From Rhodovibrionaceae bacterium (GTDB lineage: Bacteria; Pseudomonadota; Alphaproteobacteria; Kiloniellales; DSM-21159), in the NCBI GenBank assembly GCA_028282405.1, contig JANQIA010000306.1:1-50821 (forward strand): a stretch of 50,821 nucleotides of DNA. The letters run 5' to 3'. Position numbers and translations under genes: made by a program. A model generated the notes under the pieces. That model saw nothing but the letters and a program-made list of their open reading frames with translations. It ran no database searches and had not been told where the DNA came from. Numbering within the stretch: position 1 is the first letter of the stretch; the number at the start of each line of letters is the position of its first letter. This document shows, piece by piece, positions 1,438-39,508 of the stretch.

Positions 1438-1457
1438 CGCCGCTTAAGGGGGCCAGC

Positions 1458-4421: not shown

Positions 4422-5132
4422 ATGACATCCCCAACAATCCTGCGCGACAGTGCCGTGTTCGAGAAGTTTGCGAGCCCGTTCAAGGAATTCGGTCCTGCCG
4501 GCACTTTCTATATCGCTGATCGCGTCTTTCGGCGCGTAAGTTCGGGTGTCACCGTTCATTTCTATGAATTGATGGCGCAGCCCCTGGCGGATAAGCCGCT
4601 GCTCCCGCCCCGGCTCGGTAAGAACGTTGTTGTGCGTGAAATCCAGCGTGACGACCCCGCAGTAGGGCTTATGGGGCTAACCGATGAAGTTCTGGCGTTT
4701 CGTTTCAATCAATCGACTGTATGCCTAGGCGCGTTCAAGAAAGGTACTTTCATAGGGTCCATGTGGTTTTGCATTGGTCCTTACGAAGAGGACGAGGTGC
4801 GCTGTACATTTGTGCCGCAACCTGAGAGCTCCGGCGTTTTCGATTTCGGTCTGGAGGTCTTGCCACAACACCGTTTAGGGGTTGGGTTTGTTGCACTCTG
4901 GGACGGCGCAAATCGCTATCTCCGCGACCGCGGCTATCGATATTCGTTCAGCCGTGTGTCTCGTTTCAACCTGACCTCACGCCGGGTTCATGAGCGCTTC
5001 GGGTGGTTCTGCTTGGGGCGGGCGTTATTTGTGAAGCTGAAACGGTTTCAGTTTATGGTCGCAACCGTTGCTCCCTATCTACATTTCTCTGTGAGCACCA
5101 ACACTAGGCCGACGATACGCCTAAGGGCCTAG
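4422..5132 (+). CDS. GNAT-family N-acyltransferase-like protein (lower GC than neighbours)
   Basis: This 236-residue protein has a GNAT-like C-terminal half. A segment near 145-160 (LEVLPQHRLGVGFVALWD) sits where the acyl-CoA-binding motif A lies. It is followed by a helix with YLRDRGYRYSFSRV and a terminal LTSRRVHERFGW block like the common N.AS...YEKLGF ending. The glycine-rich loop is poor (HRLGVG), so the donor may not be ordinary acetyl-CoA. GC counted by hand on two lines is near 50 percent, against about 68 percent on a sampled line of the heparinase gene, suggesting acquisition from another source. It lies just upstream of an acyl carrier protein gene on the same strand. I infer that it may move an acyl group from that carrier; the product is unproven. 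Confidence 0.6.
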   Translation: MTSPTILRDSAVFEKFASPFKEFGPAGTFYIADRVFRRVSSGVTVHFYELMAQPLADKPLLPPRLGKNVVVREIQRDDPAVGLMGLTDEVLAFRFNQSTVCLGAFKKGTFIGSMWFCIGPYEEDEVRCTFVPQPESSGVFDFGLEVLPQHRLGVGFVALWDGANRYLRDRGYRYSFSRVSRFNLTSRRVHERFGWFCLGRALFVKLKRFQFMVATVAPYLHFSVSTNTRPTIRLRA

Positions 5133-5163
5133 AAGGTCTGTTTACAATGCAGCTTTTGCGCGT

Positions 5164-5170
5164 AAGGAGG
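5164..5170 (+). promoter_or_regulatory. Strong ribosome binding site deciding the ACP start
   Basis: AAGGAGG at 5164-5170 is a near-perfect Shine-Dalgarno sequence. TTG 5172 is too close to it, while GTG 5178 lies seven bases downstream, so GTG 5178 is the likely initiation codon of the acyl carrier protein. Confidence 0.7.
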
Positions 5171-5177
5171 GTTGAGC

Positions 5178-5429
5178 GTGGCAGGTGACCTCGATGAAAT
5201 CCGGGCCTTCATGACGGAAAGTCTCGGTTGCGATAGCGACATCGACCCCGAGATTGACCTGCTCGAAACTCAGGTTCTCGACTCCTTCAATATCGTCGAA
5301 GTCGCCATGTTCATTCAGGAGAACTTTCGCATCGAGCTCGATGCAGAGGACATTACACGTGAGAATTTCGCGCGCTTGTCAGGCATGGTTGCCTTGATCG
5401 AAAAGTATAGGGCTAAAGAGGAAGCCTGA
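5178..5429 (+). CDS. Acyl carrier protein (beta-amino acid pathway)
   Basis: This small acidic protein of 83 residues has an acyl/peptidyl carrier protein pattern. The phosphopantetheine attachment site is Ser36 in VLDSFNIVEV, followed by an amphipathic helix and a FRIELDAEDI segment typical of ACP helix II-III. The DSF variant of the usual DSL resembles stand-alone carriers such as DltC, BtrI and VinL. It would carry the amino acid activated by the ligase at 6215-7801 while the PLP decarboxylase at 10922-12184 acts on it. It is separated from the GST-like gene by 39 bases and is probably the first or second gene of a long operon reaching 12184. A second stand-alone ACP lies at 15510-15761. 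The carrier assignment is strong; the cargo is inferred. Confidence 0.85.
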   Translation: MAGDLDEIRAFMTESLGCDSDIDPEIDLLETQVLDSFNIVEVAMFIQENFRIELDAEDITRENFARLSGMVALIEKYRAKEEA

Positions 5430-5468
5430 CTTCGTGTCGTTGGCCAGAGTGTTGATACGAGAAGCATA

Positions 5469-6131
5469 ATGTCGTCGCACTTTACTCTGGTCTTGGGCAG
5501 CAAGAATCATTCGTCTTGGTCCATGAGGGCTTGGCTCGCGATGCGGCAGACCGGTGCCGACTTTGTCGAGGAGACAGTTCCCGTCCACACTCTTCCGGGA
5601 CAGTTCGCGCTGGCCGAACGCTCGCCCTCGCGGATGGTGCCGGTGCTGCATCATGGCGATCTCGTGGTGTGGGATTCGCTCGCTATCGTCGAGTACCTCG
5701 CAGAGCTCTTTCCCGATGCCGGCCTGTGGCCCTCCGCCCCTGGCGATCGTGCAAGGGCGCGATCGGCCTGTGCTGAGATGCACTCTGGCTTTCCCTGCCT
5801 CCGGGCAGGGCTTCCGATGGACATCCGCAGGTCGGGGCCGCCGGAGCAGCTCGACAAGGCTATGCGGACGGAGCTCCGACGGCTCTTGGCGCTCTGGGGC
5901 GAGTTGCGAGAGCGCGCCGGCCCGAACAATCCGTTTCTCTTCGGCGCATGGTGCGCGGCCGACGCCTTCTTCGCCCCCATGGCAAGTCGCTTCAGAAGCT
6001 ATGCCATCGCCCTGAGCGACGCTGGCCAAGCCTATGTTGACGCGGTCTTTGCCTGGCCGCCCGTTTTGGAGTGGTGCGAGGCCGCGCGCGCCGAGACTTG
6101 GACGACCGATGCGGTAGAAAGGACTAAGTAG
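5469..6131 (+). CDS. Glutathione S-transferase-like protein
   Basis: This 220-residue protein begins with a thioredoxin-fold GST N-domain: LVLGSKNHSSWSMRAWLAM carries the serine-rich active-site region (SSWS), and MVPVLHHGDLVVWDSLAIVE contains the cis-proline VPVL and the glutathione-binding (D/E)S pair. The C-terminal helical domain follows (FGAWCAADAFFAPM near 155-170). The length is usual for the family. It is embedded between the ACP and the ligase with short gaps, so it is probably part of the same operon. Its role there is unclear: GST homologues in biosynthetic clusters can isomerise, conjugate or cleave thioethers. The family call is firm; the function in this pathway is unknown. Confidence 0.85.
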   Translation: MSSHFTLVLGSKNHSSWSMRAWLAMRQTGADFVEETVPVHTLPGQFALAERSPSRMVPVLHHGDLVVWDSLAIVEYLAELFPDAGLWPSAPGDRARARSACAEMHSGFPCLRAGLPMDIRRSGPPEQLDKAMRTELRRLLALWGELRERAGPNNPFLFGAWCAADAFFAPMASRFRSYAIALSDAGQAYVDAVFAWPPVLEWCEAARAETWTTDAVERTK

Positions 6132-6214
6132 GGCCCGCCGGCCGCTGGCCCGGCGACCAGACGGGTTCGCCCTTCGCCTGCGGCGGGGTGCTCCGACAGG
6201 ACCAGGAGATATGC

Positions 6215-7801
6215 ATGCCGAGATCCATACCCCGCTATCTGTTCGAGATCGCGGAGCGTTTGCCTGACAAGACCGCGATCGTATCCCGCGCCGGCTCGAT
6301 TACTTTTGCCGAGCTCTGCAGGGATGCGCTCGCGAACGCTGAGTTCCTGCGCGAGCTGGGCATTCGCCCCGGCGATCGTGTCGGAGTCTGTATGGAGAAA
6401 TCGATCGATCAGGCAAGCGCGATTCTAGGGATTCTCTGCGCCAACGCCGTGATCGTGCCGATCCTGCCGCGTCTGAAAAAGATCAACATCGAACACATCA
6501 TCACGAACTCGGGCATGGCCGCCCTCGTGACCGACGACGGGCGTCTCGACCAGGTTGAAGCATTCGCGGACAAGACCAAACTGATCGTTGGGCGCGGCAA
6601 GGTGGAGCAGGACTGGCCCAACCTCGCCTATGTGCGGCGTCACATCCAGGCCGAGCCTTTCTTTGAACGGATCGGCGCGGACAACGCAGCCATCATCTAT
6701 TCATCCGGCTCGACGGGGCGGCCGAAGGGGATCCTTATCCCGCACCGCAATCTTGCCGACGGCGCCGAGATTGTCGCCCAGTACCTCGGCACCCGTGAGG
6801 ACGACCGCATCTGTTGCGTGCTGTCCTTCAACTTTGACTACGGCCTGAATCAGCTTTGGCAATGCCTGCTCAAAGGGGCAACGCTCTACCTCCATGATTT
6901 CGCGTTGCCAAACGACCTCTTCACGTTGCTGGCCGAGGAGTCGCTGACCGCCTTGCCGGTCATGCCGGTTGTCGTGACGCAAATGTTCGATCGCAGGCTC
7001 TATAGGCCCAATCCGAGCCATGACTTTTCCGCGCTGCGTTATGTCTGCTCGACGGGTGGGCGGCTTTCTGAACACATGATCGAGGAACTGCACACCGCGT
7101 TTCCGACGAGCAAGATCTACTCGATGTTTGGCCTGACGGAGGCCTTCCGCTCGACATTCCTAGAGCCGGACAAGCTGCGCTTGCGCCCGACGTCTATCGG
7201 TAAAGCGATCCCCGGCGTTCAAGTGCTGGTGCTCGACGATGAGGGGAAGGAGTGCGCGCCGAACGAGCTCGGCGAGCTGGTGCACCGCGGCGCCTGTGTG
7301 TCGAAGGGCTATTGGCAGGATCCCAAGAATACCGACCGCGTGTTTCGGACTCACCCCGATTACCCGGGCGAGACCTTGGTCTTCAGCGGGGACTGCGTCT
7401 ACCGCGATGACGAGGGTTACATCTACTTCCACTCCCGTCGCGACGAGATGATCAAGACGCAAGGTTTTCGGATTAGTCCGACGGAGATCGAGGCCGAAGT
7501 GGTCAAGCATCCCGAGATTTCGGCCGCCGTGGCGTTCGGCATCCCGAACATTGCGGTCGGTGACGACATCATCTGTGCCTATACCGCTGCCGGCGAGGAC
7601 GTGCCGGTGGAGCGTACGCTCAGGCAGTACCTTAAGAACCAACTGCCGCGGCATATGGTGCCGACGTATTTAGTACCCTTTGAGGAATTTCCGATAACCG
7701 GGAACGAGGGAAAGATCGACCGCAAGACCGTCAAGGATGCGGCGCTGGACCGGCTCGGGCTCAATGCTGAGCAGAGCAAAGTCGATTTGGCGCGCCTTTA
7801 A
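6215..7801 (+). CDS. AMP-dependent amino acid:ACP ligase (VinN/BtrJ-like role proposed)
   Basis: This is a 528-residue ANL-superfamily adenylating enzyme. It has the phosphate loop YSSGSTGRPKG (near 170), the FGLTEAF motif (near 310), SGDCVYRDDEGY (near 390), the hinge region DEMIKTQGFRISPTEIE (near 410-425) and the catalytic lysine in NEGKIDRKTV near the C terminus. ATG 6215 follows CCAGGAGAT; GTG 6188 is a weaker option. It is clearly paralogous to the XrtA-associated ligase at 13668-15263 (both have GLTEAFRST, then SIGKAIP). It lies upstream of the glutamate mutase genes, and with the ACP and decarboxylase forms the trio used in vicenistatin biosynthesis, where VinN loads 3-methylaspartate onto VinL. 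Its substrate is therefore predicted, not shown, to be 3-methylaspartate. Confidence 0.85.
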   Translation: MPRSIPRYLFEIAERLPDKTAIVSRAGSITFAELCRDALANAEFLRELGIRPGDRVGVCMEKSIDQASAILGILCANAVIVPILPRLKKINIEHIITNSGMAALVTDDGRLDQVEAFADKTKLIVGRGKVEQDWPNLAYVRRHIQAEPFFERIGADNAAIIYSSGSTGRPKGILIPHRNLADGAEIVAQYLGTREDDRICCVLSFNFDYGLNQLWQCLLKGATLYLHDFALPNDLFTLLAEESLTALPVMPVVVTQMFDRRLYRPNPSHDFSALRYVCSTGGRLSEHMIEELHTAFPTSKIYSMFGLTEAFRSTFLEPDKLRLRPTSIGKAIPGVQVLVLDDEGKECAPNELGELVHRGACVSKGYWQDPKNTDRVFRTHPDYPGETLVFSGDCVYRDDEGYIYFHSRRDEMIKTQGFRISPTEIEAEVVKHPEISAAVAFGIPNIAVGDDIICAYTAAGEDVPVERTLRQYLKNQLPRHMVPTYLVPFEEFPITGNEGKIDRKTVKDAALDRLGLNAEQSKVDLARL

Positions 7802-7819
7802 CACCAGACGAGCGAGACG

Positions 7820-8257
7820 ATGAGCGTCGCAAGAGTGGTCATTGGGGTGATCGGCGACGACATTCATGTCGTCGGTAACCGCATTATCCAGCTTGCGCTG
7901 TCGGAAGCCGGTTTCGAGGTTTTCAACCTGCTCACGCGCAACCGGCCTGAGCATTTCGCCCAGGCCGCTCTCGAGGTGAACGCCGATGCGGTCTTCGTGT
8001 CGTCGCTCAACGGGGAGGGCGAGTTCTGGTGCTCCGACTTTCGCAGTCACTTCGTCGCCCTGGGGATCCCTTCCGTGCTGCTCTACGTTGGAGGCAACCT
8101 GGTCGTTGGACGCAGGAGTCAGGAGGATGTCGCCAGGCTGTTCACACAGTTCGGGTTCGACCGTGTCTACCACCAGAGCGCCGATATCGATGGCGCGATT
8201 GCTGACCTTCTCGAAGATCTAAGCCATGGCCATTCCGAGCGCGCACGCGCGCATTGA
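7820..8257 (+). CDS. glmS: Methylaspartate (glutamate) mutase, sigma (cobalamin-binding) subunit
   Basis: This 145-residue protein is a stand-alone B12-binding domain. It has the DxHxxG cobalamin signature (D14-I15-H16-V17-V18-G19), whose histidine replaces the lower base of adenosylcobalamin. SSLNGEGE near 58 and LYVGGNLVVG near 90 fit the nucleotide-tail pocket. The pattern matches the small subunit of glutamate mutase, which with the epsilon subunit converts L-glutamate to (2S,3S)-3-methylaspartate by a radical rearrangement. It starts 18 bases after the ligase and overlaps the epsilon-subunit gene by 32 bases, so the two are translationally coupled. The symbol means the mutase subunit, not glucosamine-6-phosphate synthase. 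The C-terminal 15 or so residues within the overlap appear non-conserved. Confidence 0.93.
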   Translation: MSVARVVIGVIGDDIHVVGNRIIQLALSEAGFEVFNLLTRNRPEHFAQAALEVNADAVFVSSLNGEGEFWCSDFRSHFVALGIPSVLLYVGGNLVVGRRSQEDVARLFTQFGFDRVYHQSADIDGAIADLLEDLSHGHSERARAH

Positions 8258-9632
8258 CGACATCGAGAAGTACCGCGAGCGGGTGATCGCCCATCCTTGG
8301 GCGCAGGATCTCACCCGTGACTCGGCGCGCAGCTATCTCGGCGATCTTCCCCGCCGCCGCTTCCCGGCGGTCGCCTATGCGGAGAAGGGCGATACACCGC
8401 TGATCCAGCCGCGCGGCGGTGTGCCAGCCTTCGCCGATCAGCAGGCGCTGACCCGCCAGCTCGACGAGGCCGGCGCGGACTTCATTCCGCTGACGATTGA
8501 CAGCAATACCCGGCATAACCGCTACGACGTCGCGGCCGAGCTCTTGGCGCGCAGCGAGGAGGAAGAGAAGAACTATCTCAACGGCTATCCGTTGATCGCC
8601 CACGGCTTTCGTCTGACGCGGGACCTCTACCGCGACCTCGACAAACCGATAAGCTTGCGGCATGGCACGCCGGACGCCCGCCTGCTCGCGGAGGTCGCGC
8701 TTGCCTCCGGCATCGTCGAGATCGAGGGCGGCGGGATTTGCTACTGTCTACCCTATTCGGAGGGCTTCCCGCTCGATCGCTGCTTGCTCTACTGGCAGTA
8801 CGTCGACCGCATCTGTGCCCTTCATTCGACAGACGCGGCTCCTGTCCATCGCGAGAGCTTCGGGCCTCTCACGGCAACCATGGTGCCGCCCAGCTTGGTG
8901 GTCGTCGTTCAGATTCTGGAAGCACTGCTCGCCGCCGAGCAAGGTGTCACATCCTTCGCGGTGAGTTTCGCGCAGACGGGCTCACCCAGCCAGGACGTAG
9001 CGACCGCGCAGGTCCTGAGAAAGCTCGTACGCCACTATCTGGACTCGTTCGGCTTCGAAGCCGTGAACGCTTTTCTGGTCTTTCATCAATGGATGGGGCA
9101 GTTCCCAACCGATCGGACCTGTGCGGCCGCGTTGATCACGGCGTCGGCACAGATCGGCGGTATGATCGGTGCCGACAAGATTGTGGTGAAAACGACGGAT
9201 GAAGCTCTGGGTGTGCCCACCGCGGCGATCAATGCCGAGGCGGTGCGCAATGTTCGTTACGTCTTCGACCGCTTTCGATGGGCCGACCAGGTCGGCTCGT
9301 CCCATGTCGAGGTTGAGGCGGAGTTAATCGAATCGGAAGCCAGAAGCGTTATCGAGGCGATCTTCGATCTTCCTGGTGAGCTCTTGTGGGAAAGCGTGTT
9401 CCGTGCCTTTCAGCAGGGGGTCATCGACATTCCATTCTCGCCGCATATCGACAACGCCAATCAGCTGATCACGATGCGTGACGCCAACGGTTCGATCCGT
9501 ATCAAGGAAAGTGGCAACGTGCCTATCCAGCAGGCAGATCGGAAACGCGAGCGGGAACTCCTTGCTTCGCGCGAGCAGGCGTCGAGCAAGACGTTCCGCA
9601 GCCTGCTTGTCGATATCAACATGATGTCTTGA
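8226..9632 (+). CDS. glmE: Methylaspartate (glutamate) mutase, epsilon (catalytic) subunit
   Basis: This 468-residue protein is the TIM-barrel catalytic subunit of adenosylcobalamin-dependent glutamate mutase. Residues I recall from the Clostridium cochlearium enzyme are all kept at a constant offset of four: R96 (R100), R145 in SLRHGTPDARLL (R149), E167 in IEGGGICY (E171), Y173 (Y177), Y177 (Y181) and K322 in IVVKTTDEALGVPT (K326). R63 in QPRGG probably corresponds to R66. The arginines bind the substrate carboxylates, so the enzyme should be active on glutamate. No methylaspartate ammonia-lyase, mesaconase or citramalate lyase gene is present, which argues for biosynthetic rather than fermentative use of the product. 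The gene overlaps the sigma-subunit gene. Confidence 0.95.
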   Translation: MAIPSAHARIDDIEKYRERVIAHPWAQDLTRDSARSYLGDLPRRRFPAVAYAEKGDTPLIQPRGGVPAFADQQALTRQLDEAGADFIPLTIDSNTRHNRYDVAAELLARSEEEEKNYLNGYPLIAHGFRLTRDLYRDLDKPISLRHGTPDARLLAEVALASGIVEIEGGGICYCLPYSEGFPLDRCLLYWQYVDRICALHSTDAAPVHRESFGPLTATMVPPSLVVVVQILEALLAAEQGVTSFAVSFAQTGSPSQDVATAQVLRKLVRHYLDSFGFEAVNAFLVFHQWMGQFPTDRTCAAALITASAQIGGMIGADKIVVKTTDEALGVPTAAINAEAVRNVRYVFDRFRWADQVGSSHVEVEAELIESEARSVIEAIFDLPGELLWESVFRAFQQGVIDIPFSPHIDNANQLITMRDANGSIRIKESGNVPIQQADRKRERELLASREQASSKTFRSLLVDINMMS

Positions 9633-9650
9633 ACCGGGACTATTGATGCA

Positions 9651-10892
9651 ATGGCAACACGGGTCGCGATCGATATCGGCTCGACCGTCATCAAGGTCGC
9701 AGAGCTCGGCCAAGACGGTGGCTTAGTCAGGCAGGAATTCAACGACCGCGATTTCGAGCTCGGAATCGCCGGCCAGGTCTGTGCAATCCGTGAGCAGTTG
9801 CCGGCCGATGCCGAGGTTATGATCTGTTCGTCAGCCAACGGTGGGTTGCGTGTCGGCATCGTGTGCCTGACTCCGCTGTTTAGTGGCGCCGTGTTTCGCA
9901 ACCAGGTGCTTTTGGCCGGAGCCAATCCGATCTATGTGCACGACTACGATCAGGAAGGCGGTGACCTGCGACCGGTCGACATCCTCTTGCTTGGCGGTGG
10001 CATCGACTGCAGCGACGCGGCCCCGTTTGGCGAACGCCTCGCGCGGTTTCGTGCGCAGAATTACCGTTACGGAACACTGATCTATGCCGGCAACAAGCAT
10101 TTTGCCGAGGTGGTGACACAGAGTTGTCCCGGGGCGGTCGTCATCGACAACCCGCTCAGCGGCGGGCTGCGTGGTAGGAACGCTGTTGTTACGCATGCCT
10201 TGCGTGACGCTTATCTCGACGACCTGGTGCAGAAAGAAGGTGTCAGTGAGTTGCAGGGGCGGATATCAGGGCCCATCCGGCCGTCTCCGGAGGTGGTCAA
10301 CCGCGGATTCCACCGGGTTGTTTCCAACCGCTCGGCGCTGAAGGTGAGCGGTCCCAGCATTTTGATCGACATTGGCGGGGCGACGACCGATCTTCACTAC
10401 ACCGTCGAGATCGTGAGCGAGGACAGCCCTTGCAGACCGGCTGCCGGCTCTTCGGTCGCGCGCTACGTCTTCACCGATCTTGGGATTTTTGCATCACGCG
10501 ACTCGACGCTTCTTCAGATGCGCACCCACGCGCGGACCTTCGAGTTCCTGAGTCATGTTCAAAAGGCCGACCTCACGGAGATCTATACGCTGTTGCGCGA
10601 AGGCGAATACGATGCCTCGCCGGAGCTTCTCGCCTATGCCTGTTTGTTTTTGAGCCTCGACCGCTTCGTTTATGGGGGCGAGCAGGGATTGCCACGCGCG
10701 GATTTCGACAAGGTCACTCAAGTGATGCTGACCGGCGGCGGTGCGCAAGCGCTTGATGAAAGCACCGTTGCCAAGCTGGTTCGCCTGTTTTCGCCCAAGC
10801 AGCGGAACGAGCCTGAGGTACTTATCGACCGGCGCTATCAGATCTGGGCCGAAGGGATCACCTGGTCGACCAACACGCGGGCCGCAGCTTAG
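9651..10892 (+). CDS. glmL: GlmL/MutL-family glutamate mutase reactivating factor
   Basis: This 413-residue ASKHA-fold ATPase has phosphate-1 motif AIDIGSTVIKVAE at the N terminus, the second phosphate motif LIDIGGATTDLH near residue 240 and an adenosine motif MLTGGGAQ near 362. These mark the MutL/GlmL family, which sits with glutamate mutase genes and is thought to remove inactivated cobalamin from the mutase. In Clostridium tetanomorphum its homologue lies between the sigma and epsilon genes; here it follows epsilon by 18 bases. Its presence shows a complete mutase system. The name must not be confused with the DNA mismatch repair protein MutL. Confidence 0.93.
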   Translation: MATRVAIDIGSTVIKVAELGQDGGLVRQEFNDRDFELGIAGQVCAIREQLPADAEVMICSSANGGLRVGIVCLTPLFSGAVFRNQVLLAGANPIYVHDYDQEGGDLRPVDILLLGGGIDCSDAAPFGERLARFRAQNYRYGTLIYAGNKHFAEVVTQSCPGAVVIDNPLSGGLRGRNAVVTHALRDAYLDDLVQKEGVSELQGRISGPIRPSPEVVNRGFHRVVSNRSALKVSGPSILIDIGGATTDLHYTVEIVSEDSPCRPAAGSSVARYVFTDLGIFASRDSTLLQMRTHARTFEFLSHVQKADLTEIYTLLREGEYDASPELLAYACLFLSLDRFVYGGEQGLPRADFDKVTQVMLTGGGAQALDESTVAKLVRLFSPKQRNEPEVLIDRRYQIWAEGITWSTNTRAAA

Positions 10893-10921
10893 CGCCCGAG
10901 GGTATCCGAGAGGGAGAACGG

Positions 10922-12184
10922 ATGTCTGAATTGCAAACGCCCGGTCCGAGTGCTCTCGATGGCGATGCGATCGAAGCGCTCGCCGCGAAGTACGATACGC
11001 CGTTCTATCTCTACGACGCGGACATCCTTCGCGCGCGGGTCGCCCGGGTACGCAAGGCGTTCGACGGGTTGTTCAAGATCTACTTCGCGGTCAAGGCAAA
11101 CCCCAACTTGGCGCTGCTGCGGGCCATGGACGATGCCGTCGATGGGCTCGACATCTCTTCTGGCGGCGAGCTCGAGCAGGCGATCACGGCAGGGTACGAC
11201 GCGGCCCGGATGAGCTTTGCCGGCCCTGCGAAGACAAGACACGAGCTTACCGCATCCCTGGAACAGGGGATCGGCTCGATCAGCGTGGAATCGCCACGTG
11301 AGCTTGCCGAGATCATCGAGATCGCATCGCGGCTCAACATGCGCGCCAATGTCGTTCTTCGCGTGAACCCGCGGCAGCTCGTCAAGGAATACGGCATGAA
11401 GATGGGCGGCCGCCCGGTTCAGTTCGGCATCGACGAGGAGGAGGTTGCCGATGCCGCCGATCTCATTCGGACGAATGCCAATGTTCTGAACTTCCGCGGC
11501 GTCCACATGTATGTCGGCAGCCAGTGCTTCGAGGCTGCGGGAATCGAGAAACACGTGACCGGCACGCTGCGGCTGGTGCAGGAGATCGAAGCGGAAACCG
11601 GGCTGCATTGCCAGACGATCAATCTGGGCGGCGGCTTCGGTGTCTCTCATTCGGAGGCGGAGCGCGAACTCGATGTCGAGACGCTCGGTGCCGCGCTCGT
11701 ACCGAGCGTGCGGGAGTTCTTGCAGAGCGGGAGCGCCTCGCGCGAGCTGATCTTCGAGCTCGGCCGCTACGTTGCTGCCGACGCCGGCTCCTACATCTGC
11801 CGGGTGATCAGCAGCAAAACTTCACGTGGCAAGACGTTCTTCGTCGTTGACGGGGGGCTGCACCAGCACCTTGCAGCGGGGGGGATGTTCGGCGTCGGAC
11901 TGCGCTCGAACTACATCCTCAAGAACCTGACGCGTCCCGATGCGCTAGAGGTGAAGTGCAACATTGCTGGACCACTCTGCAACCCGACCGACTTGCTAGG
12001 AGTCAACGTGACGCTGCCGAAGCCCGAGTGCGGAGACCTTATTGCTGTTCTAAAATCCGGAGCCTACGCACTCACGGCTAGTCCGCTCCTCTTTCTCGGC
12101 CGTCCGACACCAGCTGAACTCGTTCGGCATAATGGGACTGTGACGCTTGGTCGCCGCGCCCGCACCATAAGCGAATTCAACTGA
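10922..12184 (+). CDS. PLP-dependent aminoacyl-ACP decarboxylase (VinO/BtrK-like)
   Basis: This 420-residue fold-type III decarboxylase is related to diaminopimelate decarboxylase. The PLP lysine is K58 in YFAVKANPN, the glycine-rich phosphate site is INLGGGFGVSH (near 238), and the cross-subunit cysteine is C353 in GPLCNPTDLL, followed by KSGAYALTASP. BtrK in butirosin and VinO in vicenistatin biosynthesis belong to this group and act on aminoacyl-ACP rather than free amino acid. With glutamate mutase, ligase and ACP upstream, the predicted reaction is 3-methylaspartyl-ACP to 3-aminoisobutyryl-ACP. ATG 10922 follows GAGGGAGA. It is paralogous to the XrtA-associated decarboxylase at 12403-13671, which converges on it across 218 bases. 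Family certain; substrate inferred. Confidence 0.88.
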   Translation: MSELQTPGPSALDGDAIEALAAKYDTPFYLYDADILRARVARVRKAFDGLFKIYFAVKANPNLALLRAMDDAVDGLDISSGGELEQAITAGYDAARMSFAGPAKTRHELTASLEQGIGSISVESPRELAEIIEIASRLNMRANVVLRVNPRQLVKEYGMKMGGRPVQFGIDEEEVADAADLIRTNANVLNFRGVHMYVGSQCFEAAGIEKHVTGTLRLVQEIEAETGLHCQTINLGGGFGVSHSEAERELDVETLGAALVPSVREFLQSGSASRELIFELGRYVAADAGSYICRVISSKTSRGKTFFVVDGGLHQHLAAGGMFGVGLRSNYILKNLTRPDALEVKCNIAGPLCNPTDLLGVNVTLPKPECGDLIAVLKSGAYALTASPLLFLGRPTPAELVRHNGTVTLGRRARTISEFN

Positions 12185-12402: not shown

Positions 12403-13671
12403 CTAGACCAGCGCTTCGGCCGGCTGCGGATGACTCAGAAAGGCGGTCGGACTGGCCGTCAGGCCGTAGGCACCGGACTGGAAGACGGCGATCAGGTCGC
12501 CGACCTCGGCGCGGGGCAGGGTCATCTTGTCGGCCAGCAGATCGAGCGGCGTGCAGAGCGGGCCGACGACGCTGACGCTTTCTTCTGATGGAGCATCCAT
12601 CTTGGTGGCCACGGCCACGGGATAGTTGCGGCGAATACGCTGGCCGAAGTTGCCGGAGGCCGCCAGGTGATGGTGCAAGCCGCCGTCGGTTACCAGGAAG
12701 ACCTCGCCGCGGGAGACCTTGCGGTCGACCACGCGGCAGATATAGACACCCGCTTCGCCGACGATGAAGCGGCCGAGCTCGATGATCGGCCGAGCCTTGG
12801 GCATCTCCGCCGTCAGGCGCGGCAGCAGCTCCGATAGCGCCTCGCCGACCCGGGCCAACTCCAAGGGCTTGTCGTTGGGGAAGTAGGGAATGCCGAAGCC
12901 GCCGCCGAGGTTTACGTGGGTCACCTCGGCCGGGCAGTGCTGAGCCAGCCGGAGCAGCAGCTCAACCGTCTTCTCCTGGGTCTCAAGAATCAGCTCGGCG
13001 TGCAGGTTCTGAGAGCCGGCGAAGACGTGGAAGCCTTCGAAGCGGAGGTCCAGGCCGCGCAGCTCGCCAAGCAACTGGGGCACACGCTCGGCATCGACGC
13101 CGAACTGCTGGGCGCCACCGCCCATGCGCATGCCCGAGGCCTTGAGCTGGAAGTCCGGATTGATGCGGATGGCCACCCGCGGCCGGATGCCGAGCGCTTC
13201 ACCCACCTCGGCCAGGCGAGCCACTTCAGTTTCGGACTCGACCTCAACCAGCACGCCGGCTGCGACCGCCTGGCGCAGCTCCCAAGGCTGCTTTCCGGGG
13301 CCGGCGAAGCTGATGTGCCGGGCGGACATGCCGCTATCCAGCGCCACCTGCATTTCCAGCGGCGAGGCAATGTCGAAGCCGTCGACCAGTCCGCGCAGGT
13401 GCTGCACCACGGCCGGCATGGGGTTGGCCTTGACCGCATAGTGCAGAGCGATGGCCATCGGCAGATGCTTGCGCAGTAGGGCGATGCGGGTGTCTAGCTT
13501 GGCCCGGTCGTAGGCGTAGAAAGGCGTGCGGCCGATGCGCTCGGCGAGCTGCGTCACCGGGGTCTCTCCGATCAGCAGGCAGCCGTTGCGGGCGGCATAG
13601 CTTGAGAGAGCAGGATGCCGCGCATCGGCCTCTTGTCCCTCGGTCACTGCGATCCTCTCGGCCTGGCTCAT
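12403..13671 (-). CDS. PLP-dependent decarboxylase, XrtA-system associated
   Basis: This 422-residue fold-type III decarboxylase belongs to the family seen in exosortase A loci (TIGR03099 type, from memory). It shows LHYAVKANPMP with the PLP lysine, SFAGPGKQPWELRQA, NLGGGFGIPYF, and GPLCTPLDLL with the active-site cysteine, then SGAYGLTASPTAFLSHP. Its start overlaps the stop of the upstream ligase as ATGA (13668-13671), so the two are translationally coupled. The substrate of this family is not known. Its resemblance to the decarboxylase beside glutamate mutase, and to BtrK/VinO, suggests that it acts on an amino acid held by the ACP at 15510-15761. Confidence 0.9.
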   Translation of the reverse strand: MSQAERIAVTEGQEADARHPALSSYAARNGCLLIGETPVTQLAERIGRTPFYAYDRAKLDTRIALLRKHLPMAIALHYAVKANPMPAVVQHLRGLVDGFDIASPLEMQVALDSGMSARHISFAGPGKQPWELRQAVAAGVLVEVESETEVARLAEVGEALGIRPRVAIRINPDFQLKASGMRMGGGAQQFGVDAERVPQLLGELRGLDLRFEGFHVFAGSQNLHAELILETQEKTVELLLRLAQHCPAEVTHVNLGGGFGIPYFPNDKPLELARVGEALSELLPRLTAEMPKARPIIELGRFIVGEAGVYICRVVDRKVSRGEVFLVTDGGLHHHLAASGNFGQRIRRNYPVAVATKMDAPSEESVSVVGPLCTPLDLLADKMTLPRAEVGDLIAVFQSGAYGLTASPTAFLSHPQPAEALV

Positions 13672-15263
13672 GCGGCTTCACCTTCGCGAAACATCTCGGC
13701 GCAGCCCTCGGCGAGGGCGCGGCGGTCGATCTTGCCGTTGCCGGAGCGGGGCAGGCTCTCCCGCAGCAAGACTGCACGTGGCAACATATAGGCCGGCAGC
13801 GCTTTCTTGTAGTCTGCCATCAGGCTGTCCTCGTCGAGCGTAGCCTGGCTCTTCGGTGCGACGATCAGCACGATGGCCTGGCCCAGCTCGTCATGAGGTA
13901 CGCCGATGGCGGCCGCTTCGGCCACGTCGTCCCTAGCATAGGCCAGCTCTTCGATTTCCGTCGGGCTGACCCGGTAGCCGGAGGTCTTGATCATGTCGTC
14001 CCGCCGGCCGACGAAGTAGAGGAAGCCCTCCTCGTCACGGCGCACGATGTCGCCCGACCAGACGGCCAACTCTTTGTTGGGGATGCCCTCGGGCTGGCCG
14101 GGTGCCGGACGAAAGCGCTGGGCGGTCATCTCGGGATCGTTCCAGTATCCAAGCGAGACCAAGGCGCCACGGTGCACCAGCTCGCCTTCCTCGCCAGCCT
14201 CGCAGAGGCTGCCGTCGGGGCGGGCAACCAGGATTTCGGCGTTCGGGATGGCTTTGCCGATGGAGTCCGGGCGACGGTCGACCTCCGCCGGGTCCAGATA
14301 GGTCGAGCGGAAGGCCTCGGTCAGGCCATACATCAGGAAGGGCTTTGCCTGCGGGAAGGTCTCGCGCAGTTGGTCGAGCAGAGCCCGCGGCATGTGACCG
14401 CCGGTGTTGGCGAAGTAGCGCAGGCTTTGCCGCGCCTCCTCCGGCCAGCTCTGCCGCATGAGCTGTATGTAAAGCGGCGGCACGCCGGTGAGGCCGGTGA
14501 TGCCCTGCTTGGCGCAGATGCGCGGCACTTCGCCGGGCAGCAGATAGTTGTGCAGCACCACCGTCGCGCCGACGCAGAAGGCGGTGGTGAGCTGGCTGAG
14601 GCCGGCATCGAAGCTGAAGGGCAGCACCGCCAGAATGCGGTCGTCGGGCCGGTTGCCGATGTAGCGGGACACGCTCTGGCCGCCGACGATGAGATTGCGG
14701 TGGGACAGGACGACGCCCTTCGGCCGACCGGTGCTGCCGGAGGTGTAGAGAATGGCGGCCATGTCGGTGTCGATGGTCCGCGCACCAGCCCCTGGGGTGC
14801 CGGCGGAATCCAGGAGGTCCTGCCAGCCGGTGACAGCGTAGTCGCTTGCTGCAGCGGTATCCGCAGGTCCGTCGACCAGCACGACATGGCGCAGCGAGGG
14901 ACAGTCCTTCAACTCGTCGCTAAGCGCCTGTAGCCGCGCGGCCGAGGTGATCAAGACAGGGGCCTGGCAGTTCTCGGCGATGTAGGCGACCTGGGCGGGC
15001 TTGGCGACCGGATTGATCGGTACGAAGGCGCCACCCGCGTAGGCGGCGCCGAAGGCGGCGGCCAGCATCTCCGGGCGCTTTTCCAGGAAGATGCAAACCC
15101 GGTCCCGCGGCGTCAGGCCGAGGGACAGAAGGGCCTGGGCGACGGCTTCGACATCGGACCAGAGCGCCTCATAGCTTCGGCCCTGACCCTTGTGCACGAT
15201 GGCTTCGTGGTCAGGGCTGCTCTCGGCCTTCTCTTTGATGAACTCAGCGACGTTGAGCAGCAT
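13668..15263 (-). CDS. AMP-dependent ligase, XrtA-system associated
   Basis: This 531-residue ANL-superfamily enzyme has LYTSGSTGRPKG near residue 170, MYGLTEAFRST near 310, WSGDIVRRDEEGF near 400, DDMIKTSGYRVSPTEIEE near 420 and the catalytic lysine in SGNGKIDRRAL near the C terminus. It matches the acyl-CoA ligase-like family of exosortase A loci (TIGR03098 type), whose true acyl substrate is not established. It forms a coupled pair with the decarboxylase through an ATGA overlap and is divergent from the ACP gene at 15510. Activation of an amino acid onto that ACP is the simplest reading, supported by the paralogous ligase of the glutamate mutase cluster. Confidence 0.9.
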   Translation of the reverse strand: MLLNVAEFIKEKAESSPDHEAIVHKGQGRSYEALWSDVEAVAQALLSLGLTPRDRVCIFLEKRPEMLAAAFGAAYAGGAFVPINPVAKPAQVAYIAENCQAPVLITSAARLQALSDELKDCPSLRHVVLVDGPADTAAASDYAVTGWQDLLDSAGTPGAGARTIDTDMAAILYTSGSTGRPKGVVLSHRNLIVGGQSVSRYIGNRPDDRILAVLPFSFDAGLSQLTTAFCVGATVVLHNYLLPGEVPRICAKQGITGLTGVPPLYIQLMRQSWPEEARQSLRYFANTGGHMPRALLDQLRETFPQAKPFLMYGLTEAFRSTYLDPAEVDRRPDSIGKAIPNAEILVARPDGSLCEAGEEGELVHRGALVSLGYWNDPEMTAQRFRPAPGQPEGIPNKELAVWSGDIVRRDEEGFLYFVGRRDDMIKTSGYRVSPTEIEELAYARDDVAEAAAIGVPHDELGQAIVLIVAPKSQATLDEDSLMADYKKALPAYMLPRAVLLRESLPRSGNGKIDRRALAEGCAEMFREGEAA

Positions 15264-15470: not shown

Positions 15471-15509
15471 CACGCGTCGAAGGGTTAAGAAGCCGCAAGG
15501 ATAGACTTG

Positions 15510-15761
15510 ATGCCGACGGTTCAAAATCTCCGTGAGATCCTGGGTGATGTTCTCCAGCTCGGCGAGCGGGCTGGCAGCCTGACCGAAACCTCCGGCCTGT
15601 TCGGCAGCATCCCGGAATTCGACTCCATGGCGGTGGTGACGGTGGTTGCCGCCTTGGAAGAGCGCTTCGGCATCATCGTCGACGATGACGATATCACGGC
15701 TGAGGTCTTCGAGAGCGTCGGCAGTCTGGCCCAGTTCGTCGACGACAAGCTGGCGGCGTGA
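15510..15761 (+). CDS. Acyl carrier protein, XrtA-system associated
   Basis: This 83-residue carrier protein has the phosphopantetheine site Ser39 in PEFDSMAVVTV, followed by LEERFGIIVDDDDITAEVF, the usual acidic helix II-III region. ATG 15510 is preferred over TTG 15507 because of CAAGGA at 15495-15500. Its stop overlaps the GTG start of the next gene (GTGA), so ACP and hydrolase are translationally coupled. This arrangement of ACP, hydrolase 2 and hydrolase 1 divergent from ligase and decarboxylase is typical of exosortase A loci. It probably carries the product of that ligase. Confidence 0.9.
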   Translation: MPTVQNLREILGDVLQLGERAGSLTETSGLFGSIPEFDSMAVVTVVAALEERFGIIVDDDDITAEVFESVGSLAQFVDDKLAA

Positions 15762-16615
15762 CGGCAAGCCCACCTTCCAAGCCTTTCGTTCCCTTTTTTC
15801 TCGACGGCGCTGACGGGCCGCTTTTCTGCCTTCACTATCCGCCTGCCGCAGGACGCACGGCGCGCGGCGCTTTGCTGTTCGTGCCGCCTTTCGCCGAAGA
15901 GATGAACCGCGCGCGGCGCATGGTCGTGCTCCAGGCGCGGCGCTTGGCGGACCTTGGCTTCCACGTCCTGCTGCTCGACCTCTATGGCACCGGCGACAGC
16001 GCCGGGGACTTTGGTCAAGCGCGCTGGGAGGGCTGGCTGGGTGACCTAGGGCGCGCAAGGCAGTGGCTGGGCGAGCAATCGGGCCTGCCGGTGACGCTCT
16101 GGGGCTTGCGTACAGGCTGTCTGTTGGCGGCGCAGCATCACCGAGACAACGACGAAGTCCCGGGCCGTCTGCTGTTCTGGCAGCCTGTCGTCAACGGTCA
16201 GCTCTTTCTGACCCAGTTCCTGCGGCTGAAGATCGCCGCGGCCATGGCTGACGGGGCCGAAGGCGCCGAGCAAAAGGGGCCGAGCACCAAGGCTCTGCGC
16301 CAGGGGCTGCTTGACGGTAGAGCGCTGGAGGTCGCCGGCTATGACCTCTCTCCAGGCGTGGCGCGGGGCCTCGATGCGGCGCGGCTCGGAAAGATGGTGC
16401 CGGTGGCCGATAGCTCGGTCATCTGGCTGGAGGTGGGGCAGGGCGAAGACGTCTCACTGCCGCCGGCCAGTCAGACCGTGGTCGAAGCCTGGGGCAAAGC
16501 GAGCGTCGGGGTTCTCGCCGGCAAGGTCCCTGGCTCGTCCTTCTGGTCCATCGAGGAAACGACCCTGGTGCCGGCCCTCTGGCAGAAGACCGAGGAGGCG
16601 TTGCTGGCCCAATGA
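15758..16615 (+). CDS. Exosortase A system-associated hydrolase 2 (alpha/beta fold, nucleophile replaced)
   Basis: This 285-residue alpha/beta-hydrolase-fold protein resembles the hydrolase 2 family of XrtA loci (TIGR03101 type). It shows LFVPPFAEEMNRARR (oxyanion region, near 43-57), LLLDLYGTGDSAGDF (near 80-94) and the nucleophile elbow WGLRTGCLLA (near 117-126). The elbow reads G-L-R-T-G, so the usual serine of GxSxG is replaced by arginine, and ordinary serine-hydrolase chemistry is unlikely. It may bind an acyl-ACP or act as a non-canonical transferase. The GTG start at 15758 overlaps the ACP stop, and its own stop overlaps the ATG of the next hydrolase. Confidence 0.85.
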   Translation: MTASPPSKPFVPFFLDGADGPLFCLHYPPAAGRTARGALLFVPPFAEEMNRARRMVVLQARRLADLGFHVLLLDLYGTGDSAGDFGQARWEGWLGDLGRARQWLGEQSGLPVTLWGLRTGCLLAAQHHRDNDEVPGRLLFWQPVVNGQLFLTQFLRLKIAAAMADGAEGAEQKGPSTKALRQGLLDGRALEVAGYDLSPGVARGLDAARLGKMVPVADSSVIWLEVGQGEDVSLPPASQTVVEAWGKASVGVLAGKVPGSSFWSIEETTLVPALWQKTEEALLAQ

Positions 16616-17481
16616 CCGCGACTGAAACCCCGCTCGTCTTCTCCTGTGACGGGGATGACCTTATCGGCATTCTGCATAGGCCGGACGCGCCGCGGGATAC
16701 CGCCGTCGTCGTGGTGGTGGGCGGGCCGCAGTACCGCATCGGCAGTCACCGGCAGTTCCTCCTGCTGGCCCGAGCCGTGGCGGAGGCCGGATTCCCGGTT
16801 CTGCGCTTCGACTACCGCGGCATGGGCGACAGCGAGGGCGACTTTCGTGGCTTCGAGGATGCGGGCGAGGACATTCGCCAAGCCTTGGAGGCTTTCAGCG
16901 AGGCCATGCCGGAGGTGCGCCGCTTCGTGCTTTGGGGCCTCTGCGACGGGGCCTCGGCCATCCTGTTCTATGCCGCCGGCGATCCGCGGGTCGAGCGGGT
17001 CGTCCTGCTCAATCCCTGGGTACGGACAGAGGCTGGGCAGGCCCGCGCTATGCTGAAGCACCACTATCTCGCGCGGCTCACCAGCCGTGACTTCTGGGGC
17101 AAGCTGCTGTCCGGTAAGGTGGCGCTGGGCTCTTCCTTGCGCGATTTCGCGGGAACGCTGGTCAAGAGACTGGCCGGGTCCTCGAAACGTAGCGGCACCG
17201 CGGACGAGGGTGGCGGTAGCGCTGACGCCAGCTTGCCGGACCGCATGGCCGCGGGGCTGAAGCGCTTCGCCGGACCCGTGCTGCTGATCTTGAGCGGCAA
17301 GGATCTGACCGCCCGGGAATTCGAGGACGCTGCCAAGCTCTCCCCGCTGTGGCAGAGCTTGCTGCACGAAGAGCGCGTCACCATCGAGCGCCTGCCGGAG
17401 GCCGACCACACCTTTTCTCAAGCAGCTCGGCGCCAGGAGGTCGAGACGATGACCTGCGACTGGCTCAGAAAGAGCGATTAG
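16612..17481 (+). CDS. Exosortase A system-associated hydrolase 1 (alpha/beta fold, Cys elbow)
   Basis: This 289-residue alpha/beta-hydrolase-fold protein resembles the hydrolase 1 family of XrtA loci (TIGR03100 type). It has VVVVVGGPQYRIGSHRQF near 27-44, LRFDYRGMGDSEGDF near 63-77, the elbow WGLCDGASAILFYA near 106-119 and a late histidine in EADHTFSQ that could complete a triad. The elbow is G-L-C-D-G, so cysteine stands at the nucleophile position, as in dienelactone hydrolase. Its ATG overlaps the stop of hydrolase 2. Thioester cleavage or acyl transfer from the ACP is a reasonable idea but unproven. Its stop overlaps that of the convergent glycosyltransferase by 4 bases. Confidence 0.85.
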   Translation: MTATETPLVFSCDGDDLIGILHRPDAPRDTAVVVVVGGPQYRIGSHRQFLLLARAVAEAGFPVLRFDYRGMGDSEGDFRGFEDAGEDIRQALEAFSEAMPEVRRFVLWGLCDGASAILFYAAGDPRVERVVLLNPWVRTEAGQARAMLKHHYLARLTSRDFWGKLLSGKVALGSSLRDFAGTLVKRLAGSSKRSGTADEGGGSADASLPDRMAAGLKRFAGPVLLILSGKDLTAREFEDAAKLSPLWQSLLHEERVTIERLPEADHTFSQAARRQEVETMTCDWLRKSD

Positions 17482-20078: not shown

Positions 20079-20143
20079 CGGGCAGGCCGGGCCAATCCCC
20101 GTCCACTATCTTTCAGCTTGGAGAGCCAGGCGCGCGGCTTTCG

Positions 20144-37852: not shown

Positions 37853-39508
37853 TCAATTCCCCTTGTCGGCAAGGCGCTGGGTCGTTCGCTCGCGGTCGGC
37901 GAAATCGGCCAGGGTTTCGTCGAGAGCATCTCCCATTCGCAGCTCCGACAAGAAGGTTGATAGGCGTTCGTTGGCCTCGGCCTCCGTTCCGTCGCCGATC
38001 GGCGTGGAAACGGCGATGACCGAGGCTGGAGAATAGCCGGTCAGCAGCTTGGCCTTGATCTTCAACAGCTTGGCGAAGCGCGGATCGGCGGTTTGATCGC
38101 CGTCGACCCGGTAGAAGTACCAGATCAAGCGCTCATGCTGGCCGCGCTTGATCTTCAGGGAGACGAGCGCCTGCTCTTGCGCCTCGAACAGGGCGCTGCC
38201 TCTGGCGACACCGACGATGTCCCATGCCCGCCCGCCGATCATATGATTCTTGTAGTTGATGAGCTCGGCTTCCGGACGCTCCCAGGCGTAGCTGGCGACG
38301 TAGAGGTCGACGGGTCCGTCCGCGCTCTCGAAGCGGGTCAGCAGCGAGGCGTCGGCGTAAGGATAGATTCCGCTCCAATCGCTGGCGTCGGCGCTGGCTT
38401 GCTGCCAGGTGCCGCCGACCTCGGGCAGCGGTATCTCCAGCGTCGCGACGGGCGCTGCCGGAGGGCCGGAGACGGCATTAGACACCGGCACCATCACCGC
38501 CAGCAGGAGCCCTGCGGCCAAGGGTGCGGCGCGTCGAGCCAGGCTTCTGCGGGGAGGCGCCGGCGTGGGCTGCGTTTCGGGAAGGGCTTCCGGCGGCTCG
38601 CGGAAGTGAAAAGCGATTGCGATCAGCAGCAGGGTGACCAGGCCAAAGAAGACCCAGCCATAGAGGATATGATCGACACCGACCGCGATCTCGAAATCGC
38701 TGACGTAGGCGACCGTCAGGATGAGGTAGGCGCGAATGACGTTCGCGATGATCGGGATGACCAGCGACAGCACCAGGATCAGCGCTTTGCGCCAGCGGCT
38801 CACGAAGAGCAGGTCCTGCACCAGCAAGCCGAGGGCGAAGGTCGCGATCAGATAGCGAACGCCCGAGCAGGCCTCGGCAACGAGAAAGCTGCCGCCCGGA
38901 ATGTCGATGTAGAGCCCATCGATGTAGACGGGTATCCCGGAGGCGCGGGCCAGCATCACCGTATATTCGGCGGTCAGGTCCTGCAGCGGCAAGATGGCGA
39001 ACTCGCCGAAGGGAACCATGAGAAAGAGGTAGAGGGCCGGAAAGAGCATCGCCTTGTAGCAGCGCCAGCCGAGGGCGGCGAGGAGCACGCCCTGCAACAT
39101 CACGACAAAGGCGAAGTGGGCGACCAGTTGAACGCCGGCCGCGTCGCCCAACCACCAGGCCGCCGTGCCGAGACCGATCACCGCCAAGCCGAGCCAGCTC
39201 CCTTCCGGGGTCTTGTCCTGCTGTCTCGGGTAGCGCAGCCAGGCCAGGTAGCAGGCGATGGGCAGAATCAGGAAGCCGTGATTGAAGGTCTCTGAACGGG
39301 ACCAGACCTCAACCATCGAGGCGGCGGTGTTCCAGTAGGCCAACGTGACGATGGCGGCGCCAAGCGCGATTTGCCAAGCGACCAGCCGCCAAGCCCCGGC
39401 GGTGCCGGGCTTCTCTGATGACGATGGCGTTTCGCCGGTCGCGATGCGCTCCACAGGTTCCGGCTGCTGAGCTTGCGCGGCGGGGCCGTGTTCCGACTGC
39501 GTGACCAC
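37853..39508 (-). CDS. xrtA: Exosortase A fused to EpsI (XrtA-EpsI)
   Basis: This 551-residue protein has an N-terminal exosortase domain (about 45-310, roughly eight membrane helices) and a C-terminal EpsI domain (about 340-520) beginning VGGTWQQASADASDW. The catalytic triad is C214 in VAEACSGVRYL, R259 in ANVIRAYLIL and H280 in VGVDHILYGW. Exosortases cleave PEP-CTERM proteins in the inner membrane and hand them to the EPS export system; EpsI is found fused to XrtA or as a separate gene. The start is GTG 39508. No PEP-CTERM protein is encoded in this window, so its targets lie elsewhere. Confidence 0.96.
   Translation of the reverse strand: MVTQSEHGPAAQAQQPEPVERIATGETPSSSEKPGTAGAWRLVAWQIALGAAIVTLAYWNTAASMVEVWSRSETFNHGFLILPIACYLAWLRYPRQQDKTPEGSWLGLAVIGLGTAAWWLGDAAGVQLVAHFAFVVMLQGVLLAALGWRCYKAMLFPALYLFLMVPFGEFAILPLQDLTAEYTVMLARASGIPVYIDGLYIDIPGGSFLVAEACSGVRYLIATFALGLLVQDLLFVSRWRKALILVLSLVIPIIANVIRAYLILTVAYVSDFEIAVGVDHILYGWVFFGLVTLLLIAIAFHFREPPEALPETQPTPAPPRRSLARRAAPLAAGLLLAVMVPVSNAVSGPPAAPVATLEIPLPEVGGTWQQASADASDWSGIYPYADASLLTRFESADGPVDLYVASYAWERPEAELINYKNHMIGGRAWDIVGVARGSALFEAQEQALVSLKIKRGQHERLIWYFYRVDGDQTADPRFAKLLKIKAKLLTGYSPASVIAVSTPIGDGTEAEANERLSTFLSELRMGDALDETLADFADRERTTQRLADKGN

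What the first reader, a model, noticed from the sequence alone, without database searches (positions are those of the whole stretch)
5178..12184. Glutamate mutase-ligase-ACP-decarboxylase operon: predicted 3-aminoisobutyryl-ACP pathway inside an EPS locus
One operon-like run encodes an ACP, an AMP ligase, both glutamate mutase subunits with their reactivase, and an aminoacyl-ACP-type PLP decarboxylase. The set parallels the vicenistatin starter pathway (VinH/VinI glutamate mutase, VinN ligase, VinL carrier, VinO decarboxylase), in which glutamate becomes 3-methylaspartate, is loaded on an ACP and decarboxylated to a beta-amino acyl group. No polyketide synthase is present; instead the neighbours are EPS genes and GNAT acyltransferases, so the product is probably a polysaccharide decoration. 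No methylaspartate catabolic genes are present. I know of no described EPS with this group.
Basis: partly seen in the sequence, partly recalled or inferred. Interest (0 to 1): 0.92.

Follow-up and report, generated by a model that had tools for sequence, protein, structure and literature searches.

The report
Glutamate-mutase aminoacyl carrier module in EPS locus
An uncultured bacterium (family Rhodovibrionaceae) carries, inside its slime-polysaccharide gene cluster, a complete enzyme set predicted to turn glutamate into a rare branched beta-amino acid on a carrier protein, chemistry described so far mainly from certain antibiotics.

Summary
Window 4422-12184 is an operon-like run: GNAT-like gene, ACP, GST-like gene, AMP ligase, GlmS, GlmE, GlmL, PLP decarboxylase. 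The GlmE substrate residues checked and the GlmS B12 motif are intact. The ligase pocket aligns without gaps to VinN (D230 and R331 kept). The decarboxylase is closest to BtrK among solved structures. Neither this genome nor a complete relative has the PKS marker or methylaspartate ammonia-lyase searched for. The locus is a bona fide exosortase-A (XrtA/PEP-CTERM) EPS cluster. The mutase-linked ligase is not a copy of its neighbour: the mutase-linked ligases sampled form one cross-phylum clade, and the cassette was exchanged between two congeners more recently than its flanks. Best reading: glutamate -> 3-methylaspartate -> ACP thioester -> 3-aminoisobutyryl-ACP, transferred to an EPS sugar. 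Chemistry about 0.7, EPS destination about 0.5; nothing is shown biochemically. New variant of a known kind.

The parts
4422..5132 (+). GNAT-like protein, candidate transferase of the ACP-bound group (GNAT2)
   Evidence: No Pfam/NCBIfam hit; kept immediately upstream of the ACP in L031 (88%) and L032 (40%); profile of 3 sequences gives AAC(6') 1s3z as best solved-structure hit at E 0.011, three of five weak hits being acetyltransferases; AlphaFold model poor, pLDDT 42.
5172..5429 (+). Acyl carrier protein A
   Evidence: PF00550 20.3 bits (cut-off 20.8); nearest NCBIfam models include AmcB and DltC; DSF motif.
5469..6131 (+). Glutathione-S-transferase-like protein, role unknown
   Evidence: PF13409 49 bits; 96% identical in the congener, absent from L032.
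6215..7801 (+). AMP-forming ligase A, VinN-like beta-aminoacyl-ACP ligase
   Evidence: TIGR03098 495.9 bits, under its cut-off 592; VinN is the top solved-structure hit of the pocket segment and first in the structure second look, Z 51.2, tied with others; pocket D-Y-T-F-R against VinN D230-F231-S299-K330-R331.
7820..8257 (+). GlmS, B12-binding subunit of glutamate mutase
   Evidence: NF002612 161.1 over cut-off 110; DIHVVG cobalamin motif.
8226..9632 (+). GlmE, catalytic subunit of glutamate mutase
   Evidence: TIGR01503 405.5 over cut-off 390.1; aligns to Clostridium cochlearium GlmE; R66, R100, R149, E171, Y177, Y181, K322, K326, E330 equivalents identical. Only GlmE in the genome.
9651..10892 (+). 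GlmL/MutL-type reactivase
   Evidence: PF13941 99.7 over cut-off 27; NF040745 80 against 475.
10922..12184 (+). PLP decarboxylase A, aminoacyl-ACP type
   Evidence: TIGR03099 419.9 (cut-off 478.45), lysA 282.7 (cut-off 297.9); best solved structure BtrK 278 bits against 161 for the best diaminopimelate decarboxylase.
12403..13671 (-). Canonical XrtA-associated PLP decarboxylase (module B)
   Evidence: TIGR03099 610 over cut-off 478.45.
13668..15263 (-). Canonical XrtA-associated ligase (module B)
   Evidence: TIGR03098 754 over cut-off 592.35; VinN again top hit of the pocket segment.
15507..15761 (+). Acyl carrier protein B
   Evidence: Weak hits to several ACP models; DSM motif.
15758..17481 (+). 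XrtA-associated hydrolases 2 and 1 (two genes, 15758-16615 and 16612-17481)
   Evidence: TIGR03101 282.3 and TIGR03100 365.1, both over cut-off.
37853..39508 (-). Exosortase A with EpsI domain, marker of the EPS locus
   Evidence: TIGR03109 304.8 over cut-off 208; TIGR02914 90.2 over 42.8.

Best explanation
A glutamate-mutase-fed aminoacyl-ACP cassette added to an exosortase-A EPS locus. GlmS-GlmE (kept active by GlmL) convert L-glutamate to 3-methylaspartate; ligase A adenylates its beta-carboxylate and loads ACP A; decarboxylase A removes the alpha-carboxylate on the carrier, giving 3-aminoisobutyryl-ACP; a nearby acyltransferase (GNAT-like 4422-5132 is the first candidate) transfers it to a sugar of the EPS, leaving a branched, positively charged side group. 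The neighbouring canonical module would do the analogous reactions on an unmethylated amino diacid (aspartate or glutamate). Shown by sequence: gene set, intact mutase residues, VinN-like pocket, BtrK-like decarboxylase, EPS context, joint inheritance of ligase and mutase. Inferred: every substrate, the order of steps, the acceptor.
For: Mutase residues intact. Ligase A: VinN is the best solved-structure hit of its pocket segment, gapless, with D230 and R331 kept and an aromatic residue at F231 (VinN residue roles from PMC11253843); non-family ligases in the fetched loci lack this pair. All 112 ligases examined keep D230+R331. All GlmE-linked ligases in the tree form one clade (1 change needed, 0 of 500 shuffles as low; branch support 89/51) and ligase A is nested in it with starred support; 65 of the 80 nearest GlmE loci hold such a ligase. 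Decarboxylase A: BtrK first, 278 against 161 bits, sister to the L032 enzyme. No methylaspartate ammonia-lyase and no PKS marker in G000 or the complete congener. EPS locus plus module conserved in the congener although the middle glycosyltransferase block is replaced. A related mutase-ACP-ligase cassette with an Antibiotic_NAT-type acyltransferase lies between fliD and flagellin genes in a planctomycete, as expected for glycan decoration.
Against: No biochemical data. K330 of VinN is Phe here. Position 231 does not separate mutase-linked from other XrtA ligases, so the pocket alone does not predict 3-methylaspartate over aspartate. Most mutase-ligase cassettes elsewhere have no ACP or decarboxylase in the held DNA, so the ligase need not feed a carrier. 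The cassette has a different history from the EPS genes, and its clade sits in non-EPS contexts too. The transferase assignment is weak.
Confidence: 0.58

Rival explanations
1. Same enzymology, but the product is a small secreted molecule (or a lipid or peptide headgroup) made by a cassette that merely inserted beside the EPS genes.
For: Module A has higher fourfold-site identity between the two congeners (0.78-0.91) than most of the locus (0.51-0.69) and lower GC, so it moved on its own; relatives in Micromonospora and Actinokineospora sit among radical SAM, P450, ATP-grasp and FGE-sulfatase genes with no PKS seen.
Against: No exporter, release or assembly enzyme inside the cassette; candidate acyltransferase in the unit; both genomes of the genus hold it at the same place in an XrtA locus.
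Confidence: 0.22
2. The ligase loads aspartate or glutamate rather than 3-methylaspartate, giving beta-alanyl- or gamma-aminobutyryl-ACP, and the mutase product is used elsewhere.
For: Ligase A and ligase B share most pocket residues; the best decarboxylase relative BtrK acts on L-glutamyl-ACP by its PDB name; VinN also binds L-aspartate.
Against: Mutase-linked ligases are one clade, next to the mutase in 65 of 80 loci; mutase genes lie between ligase and decarboxylase genes here.
Confidence: 0.13
3. The acyl group decorates a protein glycan (flagellin or a PEP-CTERM protein) rather than the EPS.
For: Planctomycete cassette between fliD and flagellin genes; XrtA loci handle PEP-CTERM proteins (established knowledge).
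Against: No flagellar gene was found among the annotated neighbours in the window; these are EPS assembly genes.
Confidence: 0.1
4. Decarboxylase A is an ordinary diaminopimelate decarboxylase and the run is a fortuitous neighbourhood.
For: lysA model scores 282.7, close to its cut-off 297.9.
Against: Below the lysA cut-off, below its own TIGR03099 score (419.9), and BtrK beats every diaminopimelate decarboxylase structure by over 100 bits; conserved unit in L031 and L032.
Confidence: 0.03

Closest known systems
Vicenistatin-type 3-amino-2-methylpropionate starter pathway (VinH/VinI, VinN, VinL, VinO; Pac, Sce homologues)
   Same: Glutamate mutase, stand-alone ACP, ligase with VinN-like pocket, PLP decarboxylase (pathway as described in PMC10662134 and PMC5785472).
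   Different: No PKS marker in the genome; set in an EPS locus; ligase A is closer to XrtA ligases (327 bits to ligase B's congener copy) and to its own cross-phylum clade (up to 735 bits) than to VinN (197 bits; different search programs), so it is a parallel rather than an orthologue by these scores; own GlmL reactivase gene present.
Exosortase-A associated ligase/decarboxylase/ACP module (TIGR03098, TIGR03099; 'hypoth_equivalog')
   Same: Same three enzyme types, same kind of locus; canonical copy adjacent.
   Different: Module A scores under both cut-offs, carries glutamate mutase genes, and falls outside the canonical clade.
Butirosin BtrJ/BtrI/BtrK
   Same: Decarboxylase acts on an aminoacyl-ACP; BtrK is the nearest solved structure.
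   Different: Butirosin uses glutamate without a mutase (general knowledge); product there is an antibiotic side chain.
Catabolic glutamate mutase (methylaspartate pathway)
   Same: GlmS, GlmE, GlmL.
   Different: No methylaspartate ammonia-lyase; gene order S-E-L with a ligase instead of S-L-E without one, the order seen in the seven Firmicutes/Bacteroidetes-type loci.

Membership tests
Adenosylcobalamin glutamate mutase | GlmE over TIGR01503 cut-off with substrate-binding residues of C. cochlearium enzyme | tested here: met
   405.5 against 390.1; nine residues identical.
Adenosylcobalamin glutamate mutase | GlmS with DxHxxG cobalamin motif | tested here: met
   NF002612 161.1 against 110; DIHVVG.
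Adenosylcobalamin glutamate mutase | GlmL equivalog NF040745 (accessory protein) | tested here: not met
   80 against 475; the broader MutL Pfam model is met (99.7 against 27).
VinN-type beta-amino acid ligase | D230, R331 and a beta13-beta14 loop one residue shorter than in alpha-amino acid A domains | tested here: met
   Gapless to VinN; one-residue gap against LgrA.
VinN-type beta-amino acid ligase | K330 and F231 | tested here: inconclusive
   K330 is Phe, F231 is Tyr.
VinN-type beta-amino acid ligase | Activates 3-methylaspartate | not testable with these tools
   Needs enzyme assay.
Vicenistatin-type macrolactam cluster | Modular polyketide synthase | tested here: not met
   PF16197 absent from G000 and from the complete congener G010.
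Vicenistatin-type macrolactam cluster | VinO-type decarboxylase | tested here: inconclusive
   BtrK is the nearest solved structure; VinO's sequence was not at hand.
XrtA-associated module (TIGR03098/TIGR03099) | Both proteins over curated cut-off | tested here: not met
   Module A 495.9/592.35 and 419.9/478.45; module B met, 754 and 610.
Diaminopimelate decarboxylase | TIGR01048 cut-off | tested here: not met
   282.7 against 297.9.
Exosortase-A EPS locus | XrtA over cut-off with its glycosyltransferase, amidotransferase, FemAB, deacetylase and ATPase partners | tested here: met
   TIGR03109, 03108, 03019, 03006, 03015, 03013, 03087, 04063, 03027, 03016 all over cut-off.

The most novel reading that the evidence does not exclude
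The ligase-decarboxylase-ACP module that has stood unexplained in XrtA loci is a general beta-aminoacyl-ACP machine for putting cationic amino-acyl groups on exopolysaccharides; a cross-phylum clade coupled to glutamate mutase makes the methyl-branched version (3-aminoisobutyryl) for surface glycans, here EPS and elsewhere flagellar glycan.
Probability: 0.33. Interest if true: 0.8.

Novelty: new variant of a known kind. Interest (0 to 1): 0.62.

Why it matters
If true, a coenzyme-B12 carbon-skeleton rearrangement, known from amino acid fermentation and macrolactam antibiotics, also supplies building blocks for bacterial surface polysaccharides. It also gives a testable substrate prediction for the ligase and decarboxylase families of exosortase-A loci, which NCBI lists only as hypothetical equivalogs, and would predict zwitterionic or cationic EPS in many floc- and biofilm-forming bacteria.

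Tried and rejected
In-situ duplication of the canonical module: rejected, since ligase A groups with mutase-linked ligases of other phyla and decarboxylase A with L032. Position 231 as a marker of 3-methylaspartate use: rejected, Tyr also occurs in mutase-free XrtA ligases. Catabolic pathway: no ammonia-lyase. PKS just outside the window: none by PF16197 in either genome. AlphaFold of the GNAT-like protein was too poor to search. Plain Foldseek of ligase A gave only generic adenylating enzymes in its top 50, VinN not among them; the second aligner put VinN first but tied within 1 Z of a feruloyl-CoA synthetase and FACL13, so structure alone decides nothing. GNAT-like protein in 189 other alphaproteobacterial genomes: none. 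Literature searches for glutamate mutase with exopolysaccharide, aminoisobutyrate with O-antigen, PEP-CTERM EPS with beta-alanine, and the NCBI phrase 'exosortase A system-associated' gave nothing relevant in the open library. The decarboxylase tree has long branches (BtrK, diaminopimelate decarboxylase, L025) and is used only for its short-range grouping.
Full report
WHAT IS THERE. GlmE is the only one in the genome.

Directly downstream lie the canonical members of the same families: decarboxylase B (TIGR03099 610 bits), ligase B (TIGR03098 754 bits), ACP B and hydrolases TIGR03101 and TIGR03100. The rest of the window is a textbook exosortase-A EPS locus: XrtA/EpsI, amidotransferase, FemAB, deacetylase, ATPase, glycosyltransferases, priming transferase, export protein, and the XrtA-type acyltransferase at 49817-50626. 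So aminoacyl-ACP-type genes in an EPS locus are normal for XrtA systems; the glutamate mutase and its own ligase-ACP-decarboxylase set are what is added.

WHERE IT COMES FROM. The nearest named genome is a Rhodovibrionaceae MAG (L031, 98% GlmE); the locus is conserved in that genus-mate except the glycosyltransferase block between the canonical module and about 26.9 kb and the two genes upstream of the Asn-synthase-like gene. In a broad sample GlmE is rare: over cut-off in 5 of 61 genomes in the order, 5 of 385 in the class and 6 of 398 in the phylum, own genome included. A 35% GC contig binned as Gracilibacteria (L032) carries GNAT-like, ACP, ligase, GlmS, GlmE, GlmL and decarboxylase in the same order. 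Fourfold-site identity between the two congeners is 0.78-0.91 for GST to decarboxylase A against 0.51-0.69 for most of the locus (0.73-0.79 for the GNAT-like gene and the two short ACP genes), and GC is lower: the cassette moved as a unit, more recently than its flanks.

HOW IT LIKELY WORKS. Step 1, mutase: the equivalents of R66, R100, R149, E171, Y177, Y181, K322, K326 and E330 of the clostridial enzyme (active-site residues by general knowledge of its crystal structures) are identical. Step 2, ligase: the pocket segment of ligase A, and that of ligase B, both find VinN first among all solved structures, without gaps at the key positions. VinN binds 3-methylaspartate as a beta-amino acid through D230 and a shortened beta13-beta14 loop with K330 and R331, with F231 and S299 opposite (PMC11253843). 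Ligase A has D, R, the short loop, Y for F231, T for S299, F for K330; ligase B has A at 231. All 112 ligases examined keep D230 and R331; five unrelated adenylating enzymes from the same loci do not keep the pair. A model of ligase A (pLDDT 86.9) is closest to VinN in the second-look alignment, Z 51.2, tied with two other entries. Step 3, decarboxylase: BtrK, an L-glutamyl-ACP decarboxylase, 278 bits; best diaminopimelate decarboxylase 161 bits. Step 4, transfer: unknown; the GNAT-like protein is the first candidate on position and conservation, and on a weak AAC(6') profile match.

WHY MUTASE AND LIGASE BELONG TOGETHER. Of the 80 nearest GlmE loci across named genomes, 65 hold a ligase of this family nearby, 58 in the order GlmS-GlmE-GlmL-ligase. 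In a tree of 62 ligases all 25 mutase-linked ones need one label change (no shuffle of 500 as low), ligase A nested with L032 (100/100), a planctomycete (100/96) and two actinobacteria (100/98); the clade's own branch has only 89/51 support. Ligase B groups with mutase-free XrtA ligases. The macrolactam literature describes the same five-function logic with a PKS (PMC10662134, PMC5785472), and also a beta-alanine variant of it without the methyl group, which is a precedent for what the canonical module B might do. Here neither PF16197 nor methylaspartate ammonia-lyase occurs in this genome or in a 100% complete congener (G000 itself is 88% complete).

LIMITS. No substrate is shown. The pocket does not separate 3-methylaspartate from aspartate, since Tyr at 231 also occurs in mutase-free ligases. 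Most mutase-ligase operons elsewhere (Gammaproteobacteria, Campylobacterota) have neither ACP nor decarboxylase in the DNA held, so the ligase product may have another fate there. Only the window and its congener have the cassette in an XrtA locus; among the other genomes tested one (G771) has XrtA over cut-off, on another contig. Association with EPS is by position only.

VERDICT. Observation confirmed; interpretation plausible in its chemistry, unproven in its destination, and incomplete without the neighbouring canonical module. New variant of a known kind.

Noticed in passing
L037-L100 (45 loci; e.g. L054:8953-9432 and L054:9582-14132): A four-gene GlmS-GlmE-GlmL-ligase operon is widespread in Gammaproteobacteria and Campylobacterota, in 45 of 80 loci next to an RraA-like gene (divergent where inspected), with no ACP or decarboxylase found nearby; function unknown.
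   Followed up: partly
L033:8774-20126: Planctomycete cassette: methyltransferase, GlmS, GlmE, GlmL, ACP, alpha/beta hydrolase, ligase, Antibiotic_NAT-type acyltransferase, lying between fliD and a flagellin gene; suggests a flagellar glycan modification.
   Followed up: partly
L034 and L036 (Micromonospora sonchi, Actinokineospora bangkokensis): Mutase-ligase cassettes with a PLP decarboxylase, radical SAM protein, FGE-sulfatase-like protein and (L034) an ATP-grasp amino acid ligase, no PKS seen: possibly unexplored small biosynthetic clusters.
   Followed up: partly
L010 (G004), L025 (G331), L027 (G451), L024 (G358): GlmS and GlmE fused in one protein beside a ligase of the family and an ACP (L010, L025, L027) or beside an NRPS-sized protein (L024); Antibiotic_NAT-type gene in L025 and also in L035.
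   Followed up: partly
window 29902-32037: One protein joins the XrtA EPS export protein (TIGR03027) and the XrtA outer membrane protein (TIGR03016), both over cut-off.
   Followed up: no
window 1407-2225 and 2243-4108: Glutamine cyclotransferase gene, absent from the congener's locus, and a divergent Asn-synthase-like protein whose match to TIGR03108 starts only at model position 99 (306.8 bits, cut-off 816.9).
   Followed up: no
window 17478-26172: The glycosyltransferase-sulfotransferase-flippase block is replaced in the congener while the flanking genes are kept, as in serotype switching.
   Followed up: partly
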